This document shows, piece by piece, positions 4,002-6,277 of a stretch of 64,000 bases of DNA. Under the pieces are notes generated by a model, which did not search any database, had not been told where the DNA came from, and saw nothing but the letters and a program-made list of their open reading frames with translations. The stretch spans positions 1,178,001-1,242,000 of the forward strand of contig NZ_CP034363.1 in the NCBI RefSeq assembly GCF_007981265.1. Direction: 5' to 3'. Position numbers and translations under genes: made by a program. Source of the DNA: Pantoea sp. CCBC3-3-1. GTDB lineage: Bacteria > Pseudomonadota > Gammaproteobacteria > Enterobacterales > Enterobacteriaceae. How positions within the stretch are numbered: the first letter of the stretch is position 1; the number at the start of each line of letters is the position of its first letter.

Positions 4002-4031
4002 AAAAAAGGCCCGCATAAGCGGACCTTTTAA
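4002..4031 (-). terminator. clpP2 terminator (minus strand)
   Basis: Read on the minus strand, AAGGTCCGC pairs with GCGGGCCTT (one G-U pair) and is followed by a run of T. It lies just past the clpP2 stop, so the inserted gene has its own terminator. Confidence 0.8.
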
Positions 4032-4051
4032 GGAAGCAGTGAAAGGGCTGC

Positions 4052-4639
4052 TTAGCCTTTCAGCTCATCCCAGTGAGTAATCAGGTGGCTGGCGATGCCA
4101 TACTCAATAGCCTGCTGCGGGCTCATCCAGTAGTTGCTGTCGGTATCCTGCTCAACCTTTTCCAGCGGCTGGCCGGTTGCTTTGCTGATCAGCTTATTGA
4201 TGCGGTCGCGAGCACGAAGCAGCTCGTTCGCTTCAATTTCAATATCTGAAACTTTACCGCGGACGCCGCCCAGCGGCTGGTGGATCATAAAGCGTGTATT
4301 TGGCAGCGCGTAACGATCTTCTTTGTCAGCCGCGAGGAAGATAGTAATACCGGCGCTTGCGACCCAACCAGTACCGATAACCTGCACTCTTGGCTTCACG
4401 AATTTAATCATGTCGTGGATGGTATCGCCTGCTTCGACGTGACCGCCCTGACTGTTGATAAACAGCTTGATCGGCTCGTCACCCATCTCCTGCAAAATCA
4501 GCAGCTGAGCCGTGACTTTTTCCGCCAGCGCCTGGTCGATCTCACCTGAGATAATGACTGAGCGGGCTTGCAGCAGTTTATTAAGGGCTAGTGAGCTTTT
4601 CTCATCCTGGCCGTTTTCTTTCTTTGGCTCCTGAGACAT
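4052..4639 (-). CDS. ClpP2, divergent ClpP-family peptidase with Asn in place of the catalytic Asp
   Basis: This 195-residue ClpP paralogue lies on the opposite strand between two clpX genes. The nucleophile Ser95 (in GWVASAGI) and His120 (in FMIHQPLGG) are present. The segment QDTDSNYWMS aligns with [10 protein letters not shown] of ClpP, which puts Asn169 where the third catalytic residue Asp185 normally lies. INSPGG is changed to INSQGG. The N-terminus is a short hydrophilic tail in place of the propeptide and hydrophobic axial loop, so gating and ClpX contact may differ. The start at 4639 follows GGAG seven bases upstream; an in-frame ATG further out is less likely. It is probably a soluble, active or partly active peptidase, alone or in mixed rings with ClpP. 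Function is inferred only. Confidence 0.92.
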   Translation of the reverse strand: MSQEPKKENGQDEKSSLALNKLLQARSVIISGEIDQALAEKVTAQLLILQEMGDEPIKLFINSQGGHVEAGDTIHDMIKFVKPRVQVIGTGWVASAGITIFLAADKEDRYALPNTRFMIHQPLGGVRGKVSDIEIEANELLRARDRINKLISKATGQPLEKVEQDTDSNYWMSPQQAIEYGIASHLITHWDELKG

Positions 4640-4682
4640 CTTTAGACTCCATCGGATACGGGCTGTATAAGTAATGAAGTTT

Positions 4683-4710
4683 AGCATAATCCATTCAACA
4701 GCTAAATCAA
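4683..4710 (-). promoter_or_regulatory. Candidate sigma-70 promoter of clpP2
   Basis: On the minus strand TTGATT (4710-4705) and TATGCT (4688-4683) are separated by 16 nt, about 45 nt before the clpP2 start. No RpoH-type pattern is visible for this gene. Confidence 0.4.
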
Positions 4711-4852
4711 CACCGATTCGGAAAGCGGTTTTGCATCCAAAACAGCGTGTTAGTCAAACAAGAGGCCGCAATCGCTCCGCTGCCGTTTTATCGCTTTTGG
4801 CTGAGGATGCCCGGCCACCGTGCGCTGGCGGTCAGAACACTGTCCTTTCCGA

Positions 4853-4883
4853 CTGACAAAATAGTGTCAAAATGGGCTATATT
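4853..4883 (+). promoter_or_regulatory. Candidate promoter and operator-like dyad of clpX2
   Basis: CTGACA (4853-4858) and TATATT (4878-4883) form a weak sigma-70 pattern with a 19-nt spacer. An inverted repeat TGACA-N6-TGTCA (4854-4869) overlaps the -35 element and could be a regulator site. No heat-shock promoter is seen, unlike clpP and lon. Confidence 0.35.
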
Positions 4884-4946
4884 AGAATCTGTTCACTTAA
4901 ATTAAGTCAGCCTGTAAAGGCCGTAGAAAAGGCATGAGGTTAACTG

Positions 4947-6125
4947 ATGACAGACAAGCGCAAAGACGGTTCAGGGAAGCTGCTGTACTGCTCTTTTTGC
5001 GGCAAAAGCCAGCATGAAGTGCGTAAGCTGATTGCCGGCCCGTCAGTGTACATCTGCGATGAGTGCGTTGATTTATGTAACGACATCATCCGCGAAGAGA
5101 TCAAAGAAGTGATGCCGCATCGTGAGCGCAGTTCGCTGCCGACGCCGCATGAAATCCGCGAGCATCTTGACGATTATGTTATCGGGCAGGAAAGAGCCAA
5201 AAAAGTGCTCTCGGTGGCGGTTTATAACCACTACAAACGCCTGCGTAACGGCGATAACAGCAACGGCGTGGAGCTGGGCAAAAGTAACATCCTGCTGATC
5301 GGTCCGACCGGTAGCGGTAAGACCCTGCTGGCAGAAACGCTGGCCCGCCTGCTGGATGTGCCGTTTACCATGGCCGATGCCACCACGCTGACCGAAGCCG
5401 GTTACGTGGGTGAAGATGTCGAAAACATCATTCAGAAGCTGCTGCAAAAATGTGATTATGACGTGCAGAAAGCGCAGCGCGGCATTGTCTATATTGATGA
5501 AATCGACAAGATTTCCCGCAAGTCAGATAACCCGTCTATCACCCGTGACGTGTCGGGCGAGGGCGTGCAGCAGGCGCTGCTGAAGCTGATTGAGGGCACG
5601 GTTGCCGCCGTTCCGCCGCAGGGCGGGCGTAAGCATCCGCAGCAGGAGTTTTTGCAGGTTGATACCTCAAAAATTCTCTTTATCTGCGGCGGTGCGTTTG
5701 CCGGTCTGGATAAGGTCATTTCGCAGCGCGTTGATTCCGGCAGCGGGATTGGCTTTGGCGCCACGGTAAAAGGCAAAGCGGAAAAAGCGACTGAAGGCGA
5801 GCTGCTGGCGCAGGTTGAGCCGTTCGATCTGATCAAGTTTGGTCTGATCCCGGAATTTATCGGCCGTCTGCCGGTGGTTGCCACGCTGACCGAGCTGAGC
5901 GAAGACGCGCTGATCCAGATCCTGAGAGAGCCGAAAAACGCGCTGACCAAACAGTATCAGGCGCTGTTTAACCTCGAAGGCGTGGAGCTGGAGTTCCGCG
6001 AAGAAGCGCTGAAGGCGATCGCCAAAAAAGCGATGTCCCGCAACACCGGCGCGCGCGGTCTGCGCTCAATCGTGGAGGCCGCCCTGCTGAACACCATGTA
6101 CGATCTGCCTTCCATGGACGAAGTG
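4947..6125 (+). repeat. Direct repeat copy 2 (clpX core)
   Basis: This is the partner of the repeat at 2657-3835. The two direct copies flank clpP2, so recombination between them would remove clpP2 together with one clpX. Confidence 0.9.
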
Positions 6126-6221
6126 GAAAAAGTGATCGTTAATGATGCGGTTATTGCTGGGCATTCCGAACCCGAGCTGGTCTTTCTCAGGCCTGAGGCT
6201 CAGCAGGCGTCTGGTGAATAA
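4947..6221 (+). CDS. ClpX2, second ClpX unfoldase
   Basis: This 424-residue protein is almost identical to the ClpX encoded at 2657-3931. It has the four zinc-binding Cys, Walker A and B, GYVG pore loop and IGF docking loop, so it should be a competent unfoldase able to bind ClpP. Differences cluster near the N-terminus (for example VMPHRERSS for VAPHRERSA), at VEPFDL for VEPEDL, and in the last 35 residues ([24 protein letters not shown]). GAGG lies seven bases before the start. It is divergent from clpP2 and followed by lon. The conserved core with divergent ends suggests gene conversion between the copies. A distinct substrate range or partnership with ClpP2 is possible but not shown. Confidence 0.95.
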
Positions 6222-6253
6222 ATAACCATACCATTCCAACTGTTTAGCGCCTG

Positions 6254-6277
6254 AAGGGGGAAATTTTTCCCCCTTTT
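6254..6277 (+). terminator. clpX2 terminator
   Basis: AAGGGGGAAA pairs with TTTCCCCCTT and is followed by T. Confidence 0.8.

What the first reader, a model, noticed from the sequence alone, without database searches (positions are those of the whole stretch)
4002..6277. Second Clp module (clpP2 and clpX2) inserted between clpX and lon
The order clpP-clpX-[clpP2 reversed]-clpX2-lon adds a paired peptidase and unfoldase to the universal clpP-clpX-lon locus. The inserted pair has its own terminators and a divergent promoter region without a visible heat-shock promoter. This suggests a second, separately regulated Clp protease, or mixed ClpP/ClpP2 rings fed by ClpX or ClpX2.
Basis: partly seen in the sequence, partly recalled or inferred. 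Interest (0 to 1): 0.85.

Follow-up and report, generated by a model that had tools for sequence, protein, structure and literature searches.

The report
Paired ClpP genes with rewired ring contact
Some plant-associated bacteria carry a second, altered copy of the ClpP protease ring beside the normal one, and both rings have changed at the places where rings touch, which suggests that the cell's main protein shredder there is built from two different rings instead of two identical ones.

Summary
The arrangement is real: clpP-clpX-[clpP2 reversed]-clpX2-lon. It is conserved in 16 of 37 Erwinia genomes and in Mixta intestinalis; other genomes of both genera have an empty site.

ClpX2 is not a specialised unfoldase: the two clpX copies of one genome stay nearly identical in the core through concerted evolution. 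ClpP2 is a divergent ClpP with a Ser-His-Asn triad, as in Listeria ClpP1.

The unexpected part lies outside the coordinates given. The housekeeping ClpP next door is a special allele: 13 fixed amino-acid differences from module-free Erwinia, against 0 in trigger factor, ClpX, Lon, HupB and PpiD. Ten of the 13 lie in residues 123-171, the ring-ring region. ClpP1 lost the acid of the inter-ring 'oligomerisation sensor' (E169N/Q); ClpP2 lost its arginine (R170S). Trees show that clpP and clpX share a history with the module that differs from lon and ppiD.

Best reading: an asymmetric ClpP1-ClpP2 core served by either ClpX, travelling as a four-gene block. Structure, activity and expression are untested. 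No description appeared in the listings.

The parts
1950..2573 (+). clpP (ClpP1), module-type allele of the housekeeping peptidase; E. coli mature numbering: Ser97, His122, Asp171 kept, residue 169 is Gln instead of Glu
   Evidence: ORF 1926-2573; start at codon 9 inferred from homologues; 13 fixed differences
2657..3931 (+). clpX1
   Evidence: TIGR00382 706 bits, cut-off 370.75
3951..3976 (+). terminator-like hairpin with T-run after clpX1
   Evidence: read from sequence; not listed by the scan
4004..4029 (-). terminator-like hairpin after clpP2
4052..4639 (-). clpP2, 195 aa, Ser-His-Asn ClpP with R170S, Q131K, A132V
4683..4710 (-). clpP2 promoter-like block (-35 TTGATT, 16 bp, -10 TATGCT)
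   Evidence: -10 block identical in 16 of 16 genomes, -35 part less so; not listed by the scan
4870..4883 (+). clpX2 promoter-like block ending in -10 TATATT
   Evidence: conserved, with small variation, in the 16 genomes and present in G267; not listed by the scan
4947..6221 (+). clpX2, near-identical duplicate of clpX1
6256..6272 (+). terminator-like hairpin after clpX2

Best explanation
The four genes clpP, clpX, clpP2 and clpX2 form one functional and evolutionary block that makes an asymmetric Clp protease core, most likely one ring of ClpP1 stacked on one ring of ClpP2. ClpP2 (Ser-His-Asn, no sensor arginine) would be inactive alone and be held in the active shape by the ClpP1 ring. ClpX from either gene docks on the ClpP1 ring; the second clpX supplies more, or separately controlled, ClpX of the same kind. 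ClpP1 adapted to this partner at the ring-ring contact: it dropped the acid of the inter-ring sensor, while ClpP2 dropped the arginine. The ClpP1 R170 to ClpP2 D169 pair would then be the only complete 169/170 charge pair left, favouring mixed over like-like stacking. Shown: gene order, conservation, residue changes, linked histories, purifying selection, concerted evolution of clpX. Inferred: ring stacking, activity, docking side, the charge logic.
For: Order conserved in 16 of 37 Erwinia and in M. intestinalis, with an empty site and ordinary ClpP in the two congeners whose locus I fetched. dN/dS 0.017-0.105 for clpP2 (12 pairs) and 0-0.085 for clpX2 (9 pairs). Fixed aa differences between 16 module (15 for ClpX2) and 18 module-free Erwinia: ClpP1 13 of 197 columns; trigger factor, ClpX1, ClpX2, Lon, HupB, PpiD 0 each. 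10 of 13 lie in residues 123-171 (hypergeometric p 8e-5; Fisher against background variable columns p 0.010). E169N/Q is absent from 56 background ClpPs and from ClpP1 of 14 of 14 other two-ClpP species. ClpP2 is S170/K131/V132 in 16 of 16 Erwinia, while 68 of 72 relatives keep R170. AU tests: clpP and the clpX core join module bearers, lon and ppiD reject that. The sensor network (S. aureus D170, R171, E135, Q132, here 169, 170, 134, 131) and A133 (here 132) act in inter-ring contact: passages of PMC7496096 and a figure legend of PMC12383707. Listeria ClpP1 with Asn in the triad is active only with ClpP2: passages of PMC5361862.
Against: No expression, structure or activity data. Co-transfer of clpP with its neighbours may be passive linkage; only three independent changes of module state could be counted, too few for a significant sign test (p 0.25). 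The region 123-171 was chosen after I had seen the sequences. First and second codon positions of clpP alone do not reject the flanking-gene placement (p 0.064). Changes at 81, 128, 136, 155, 159, 161, 163 and 190 also occur in some module-free ClpPs, and 143, 145, 148 vary in other phyla. D134, a further acid of the sensor network, is unchanged, so like-like ClpP1 rings may still stack. K131 in ClpP2 may replace the lost arginine charge (K131 in 19 of 88 ClpP2s, all without R170), which weakens the simple charge argument. Species tested with a solitary ClpP2 keep E/D169 (19 of 19, 14 of 14), two Vibrionaceae without R170 among them, so the ClpP1 change is not required for a ClpP2 as such.
Confidence: 0.68

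Rival explanations
1. A second, separate Clp protease: ClpP2 homotetradecamers served by ClpX2, regulated apart from ClpXP1.
For: clpP2 and clpX2 are divergently arranged neighbours with their own conserved promoter-like blocks and terminator-like hairpins.
Against: ClpX2 is kept nearly identical to ClpX1. ClpP2 has Asn171, no R170 and lacks the N-terminal ClpP motif. Solitary ClpP2s elsewhere have no clpX in the 4.5-10 kb fetched on either side (18 of 18 loci). It does not explain why ClpP1 changed at the ring contact.
Confidence: 0.1
2. ClpP2 is a regulator or poison subunit: it forms mixed cores of low activity that tune down ClpXP, with extra ClpX to compensate.
For: Degenerate triad; the PMC5361862 passage reports a Listeria heterocomplex less active on peptides, though more active on proteins with ClpX.
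Against: Ser97 and His122 are intact in 16 of 16, under strong purifying selection.
Confidence: 0.15
3. Passive hitch-hiking: the ClpP1 allele has no functional link with ClpP2; it simply rides on the same recombining DNA, and its handle changes are lineage noise.
For: clpP is adjacent; third codon positions also group module bearers; only three independent changes.
Against: 10 of 13 fixed changes fall in residues 123-171; changes in both proteins hit the same sensor; G267, with two clpX but no clpP2, has ordinary ClpP1.
Confidence: 0.15
4. clpX duplication is for dosage only and clpP2 is a spent insertion.
For: Core of the two clpX copies is homogenised; one genome (G264) has a second clpX that matches only in pieces.
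Against: clpP2 is open in 16 of 16 with low dN/dS.
Confidence: 0.05

Closest known systems
Listeria monocytogenes ClpP1/ClpP2 heterocomplex (PDB 4jcq, 4ryf, 6sfx; organism of these entries recalled)
   Same: Best solved relative of ClpP2 (E 2.5e-73); a Listeria record gives 57% identity; Asn in place of the catalytic Asp; partner is a canonical ClpP.
   Different: Here ClpP2 also lost the sensor arginine (TDSN versus TDRN) and the canonical partner lost the sensor acid; the genes are side by side with a duplicated clpX; Enterobacterales host.
Mycobacterium ClpP1P2
   Same: Two different ClpPs in one core (search listings and abstracts).
   Different: Closeness in sequence not compared directly; clpP1 and clpP2 form one operon there (abstracts of PMC3280978 and PMC3613350 in the listing).
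Pseudomonas aeruginosa ClpP1/ClpP2 (PDB 7m1l, 7m1m, 9ndj; organism recalled)
   Same: Second ClpP in a gammaproteobacterium; found by sequence.
   Different: Weaker match to this ClpP2 (E 4e-54) than 4jcq; its clpX number was not tested.
Myxococcus xanthus two ClpPs and three ClpXs (PMC11423568)
   Same: More than one clpP and clpX in a genome (abstract in listings).
Solitary ClpP2 of Enterobacter, Lelliottia, Kosakonia, Xenorhabdus, Brenneria and Clostridium relatives
   Same: Same ClpP2 family, 60-80% identity among the 72 non-Erwinia loci of the 80 kept; Asn171 in 71 of 72.
   Different: No clpX in the 4.5-10 kb fetched on either side (18 of 18 loci); R170 kept in 68 of 72; ClpP1 sensor ordinary in 14 of 14 tested.

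Membership tests
ClpP proteolytic subunit, NCBIfam NF009205 / Pfam PF00574 | score over curated cut-off | tested here: met
   ClpP2 268 bits, cut-off 228; Pfam CLP_protease 217 bits, cut-off 20.2
Canonical ClpP equivalog TIGR00493 | score over curated cut-off | tested here: not met
   ClpP2 166 bits, cut-off 308.6; ClpP1 358 bits, met
Canonical ClpP | Ser-His-Asp catalytic triad | tested here: not met
   ClpP2 Ser97, His122, Asn171 in 16 of 16
Listeria-type ClpP heterocomplex | one subunit with Asn in the triad beside a canonical subunit | tested here: met
   Listeria feature from passages of PMC5361862
Listeria-type ClpP heterocomplex | aberrant subunit lacks the N-terminal chaperone-binding motif | tested here: met
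   ClpP1 VPMV..GERSYD motif absent from the ClpP2 sequence; by eye
Listeria-type ClpP heterocomplex | stack of two different homoheptameric rings | not testable with these tools
   needs purified proteins; no multimer prediction available
Listeria-type ClpP heterocomplex | mixed core more active with ClpX than the canonical core | not testable with these tools
   biochemistry
ClpX (TIGR00382) | score over curated cut-off | tested here: met
   ClpX2 701 bits, cut-off 370.75
Dedicated second ClpXP with its own unfoldase | ClpX2 diverged and independent of ClpX1 | tested here: not met
   0-22 aa differences; core of both copies clusters by genome

The most novel reading that the evidence does not exclude
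A self-contained block that replaces the host's housekeeping protease core: it brings a ClpP2 that cannot work alone together with a ClpP1 allele that has given up half of the inter-ring lock, so that in these bacteria (including fire-blight relatives) the main ClpXP is an obligate two-kind core. Reciprocal loss of the two halves of a salt bridge would be a natural specificity switch for ring pairing, and the block would be hard to lose once acquired.
Probability: 0.4. Interest if true: 0.8.

Novelty: new variant of a known kind. Interest (0 to 1): 0.62.

Why it matters
ClpXP in enterobacteria is commonly treated as a homotetradecamer by analogy with E. coli (recalled). The Erwinia passages read here write of ClpXP as one protease that controls RpoS and so type III secretion, motility and exopolysaccharide (PMC12910134; PMC6386880); none of the passages shown mentions a second ClpP or ClpX. 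If the core is a mixed one, those results need re-reading, since a clpP, clpX or clpXP mutant may have removed half of a paired system. The paired changes at the oligomerisation sensor also give a natural test of how ClpP rings choose partners, with module-free sister species as controls.

Tried and rejected
Plasmid origin: the best ClpP2 matches are under 60% identical in 173 of 173 plasmid records, and 0 of 72 records with a match cover 80% of the clpP2-clpX2 stretch. Shared neighbours of solitary ClpP2: ten neighbouring ORFs from five loci gave no family common to all. A diverged ClpX2 with its own specificity: rejected by concerted evolution, though the window's own ClpX2 carries 19 changes, seven of them consecutive in the C-terminal tail, and E293F. 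Direction of transfer between Erwinia clade A, clade B and Mixta: not resolved; clade B is sister to A, not inside it, in the clpP tree, and the place of Mixta inside the module group was not printed. tig alone does not decide for A+B (p 0.247); with Mixta added it rejects the union. lon does not clearly place clade B with the five species named from the concatenated tree (p 0.063). gyrB (30 of 36 genomes found) sets clade B among module-free species with weak support; its first version was wrong because minus-strand loci had not been turned. Branch supports in hand-rerooted trees may be shifted; the AU tests carry the argument. A ClpP2 model (26 sequences, mean pLDDT 84.7) is poor exactly in the handle strand and N-terminus and was not used. 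Rows dropped: two of 40 fetched ClpPs could not be parsed; one ClpP2 locus was not parsed, and one of 15 genomes (Brenneria sp. 4F2) was not held; G264 clpX2 (in pieces) and length variants were left out of clpX comparisons; G258, G259 and G274 were left out of the fixed-difference counts because their contigs end inside clpX.

Full report
What is there. The window holds tig, clpP (1950-2573), clpX1 (2657-3931), clpP2 on the other strand (4052-4639), clpX2 (4947-6221), lon (6413-8767), hupB and ppiD. ClpP2 is 39% identical to the neighbouring ClpP; the only other match in the genome is a 26% one. The genome has two clpX genes, both here. The clpP2 ORF can be read from 4687, but the closest relatives match from codon 17 and the upstream ATG overlaps a -10-like block conserved in all 16 module bearers, so the gene most likely starts at 4639. 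An in-frame TGA reported for G261 and G276 lies at the very start of the match, upstream of that start.

How common it is. In the genus (Erwinia by the names behind matching contigs) 16 of 37 genomes carry clpP2 at 84% identity or more, and all 16 have the order clpP-clpX-clpP2(reversed)-clpX2-lon, counting G264, whose second clpX matches in pieces. Named loci with this order include E. phyllosphaerae, E. aphidicola, E. piriflorinigrans, E. rhapontici and a strain filed as Pantoea coffeiphila (8 of 8 named Erwinia-group loci). Protein records of E. amylovora, E. pyrifoliae, E. persicina and E. tasmaniensis carry both protein types (gene order not checked by name). Three more genomes (G258, G259, G274) end a contig inside clpX, as short-read assemblies of a repeat do, and have a module-type ClpP; their state is unknown. 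The other 18 lack clpP2 there; 17 of them have one clpX between clpP and lon, and one, G267, has two clpX genes, no clpP2, and between them a stretch that still holds the clpX2 promoter block. In a wider draw of 392 family genomes three have ClpP2 at E 1e-95 or better: the window's own, one Erwinia and one from another genus. The last, whose contig has the length of the Mixta intestinalis record, has the full module. It is the only one of 8 genomes of its genus in which clpP2 was found; the two whose locus I fetched have the empty site and ordinary ClpP, and one, G441, has a module-type ClpP at a contig end. In a draw of 246 family genomes, 25 have a 64-74% relative of ClpP2; in the 18 loci I fetched, no clpX, tig or lon lies in the 4.5-10 kb on either side.

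ClpX2 is not a new unfoldase. In 15 genomes with two full-length copies of equal length (14 module bearers and G267) the two differ in 0-58 of 825 core positions, and the core tree places copies of one genome together, or, for the near-identical pair G248/G249, copies of the pair. The outer ends differ more; in some lineages the 3' ends group by copy, so the duplication is old and the core is repeatedly homogenised, most simply by gene conversion. Protein differences between copies run from 0 to 22 residues. In M. intestinalis the copies differ by 11 bases.

ClpP2 is a Listeria-ClpP1-like subunit. The best solved relatives are PDB 4jcq, 6sfx and 4jcr, which I recall as Listeria ClpP1. Ser97 and His122 are kept and Asp171 is Asn in 16 of 16 Erwinia and 71 of 72 relatives (the 72 are the non-Erwinia part of the 80 best loci kept). 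In Listeria such a subunit is inactive alone and active in a heterocomplex (passages of PMC5361862). Unlike most relatives the Erwinia form has lost Arg170 (Ser in 16 of 16; Arg in 68 of 72) and has Lys131 and Val132. These positions correspond to R171, Q132 and A133 of S. aureus ClpP, which act in inter-ring contact (passages of PMC7496096; legend in PMC12383707; the offset of one is mine, fixed on the catalytic Asp).

The neighbouring ClpP changed too. Between the 16 module bearers (15 for ClpX2) and the 18 module-free Erwinia there are 13 fixed amino-acid differences in ClpP (197 columns) and none in trigger factor, ClpX1, ClpX2, Lon, HupB or PpiD. Ten of 13 lie between residues 123 and 171, a range I chose after seeing the sequences. 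Five states (I143, T145, M/L148, N/Q169, Q191) occur in none of 56 comparison ClpPs, 19 of which come from genomes with a solitary ClpP2; the other eight sites are not so clean. (The M. intestinalis allele, read later, shares N/Q169, T145, M/L148 and Q191 but has V at 143; and protein P0048.) Outside the family, 143, 145 and 148 vary, but residue 169 is acidic in 14 of 14 two-ClpP species. Among the 120 closest ClpP1 proteins listed from a 5.8-billion set, the first 52 have N or Q at 169 and the other 68 E or D. G267, without clpP2, has an ordinary ClpP despite two clpX genes, so the ClpP1 allele follows clpP2, not clpX number.

One block, several histories. On lon, ppiD and tig, Erwinia module bearers fall into two groups, one of them (with the window) among module-free species, and M. 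intestinalis stays with Mixta; on clpP and the clpX core all module bearers come together. AU tests: clpP rejects the flanking-gene placement of the window's group (p 5e-5; third positions alone 0.034, first and second alone 0.064), the clpX core rejects it (6e-4), lon and ppiD reject the union of Erwinia module bearers (0.0024, 1.4e-4), tig alone does not (0.247), and lon, ppiD and tig reject the union with Mixta (2e-69, 3e-54, 7e-5). clpP rejects Mixta as one clade (0.005); the clpX core does not (0.168). The ppiD tree needs three changes of module state, and the ClpP1 allele changes with it each time, which is too few for a significant sign test. Direction is open.

Mechanism. The simplest account is a mixed core, ClpP1 ring on ClpP2 ring, with ClpX of either gene docking on the ClpP1 ring. 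Docking on ClpP1 is inferred from the missing N-terminal motif of ClpP2 and from changed pocket positions (M92T, I28S, and K at 60; pocket positions recalled, states). With E169 gone from ClpP1 and R170 gone from ClpP2, the pair ClpP1 R170 to ClpP2 D169 is the only complete 169/170 pair, which would favour mixed stacking. Against a simple version of this stand the retained D134 and the gain of Lys131, which accompanies loss of R170 in all 19 of 88 ClpP2s that have it; three of these are Vibrionaceae, and the two of them tested have an ordinary ClpP1.

Literature. Searches for two-ClpP complexes, Erwinia ClpXP, second clpX genes, ring contacts and second ClpPs listed no paper whose title or abstract start describes this module; I saw listings and abstract starts, and passages of the six papers. 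Some public records already call the protein ClpP2, so the gene is annotated; the module and the ClpP1 change appear undescribed in what I could search.

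Noticed in passing
L188 (G267) 3120-6062: Two tandem clpX genes with about 400 bp between them, no clpP2, ordinary ClpP1, and the clpX2 promoter block kept: a module that lost clpP2 or never had it.
   Followed up: partly
L168 (G246) 6250-7332: An ORF of 360 aa on the minus strand sits between clpX1 and clpP2; it looks like a membrane acyltransferase (recalled, not tested). A run of N precedes clpX1 there.
   Followed up: no
L171 (G264) 9297-10570: The second clpX matches in separate pieces, so it looks frameshifted or mis-sequenced.
   Followed up: no
L184, L185, L186, L317: Contigs of G258, G259 and G274 end inside clpX, and that of G441 (Mixta genus) ends just past clpP; all four carry module-type clpP, probably modules broken by the clpX repeat.
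   Followed up: partly
L123, L146, L164: Vibrionaceae ClpP2s have Tyr at 170 and Lys at 131: an apparently separate loss of the sensor arginine with a lysine gain.
   Followed up: partly
window 4947-6221: ClpX2 of the window differs from ClpX1 by E293F and a rewritten C-terminal tail (residues 406 and 410-416).
   Followed up: no
window 2657-3931 (ClpX residue 263, beside the IGF loop): In ClpX1, D263 in 16 of 16 module bearers against E in 16 of 18 module-free Erwinia.
   Followed up: no
L183 (G254) 9420-10004: A different second ClpP (about 50% identity, Asp171 and Arg170 kept) on another contig of a genome without the module.
   Followed up: no
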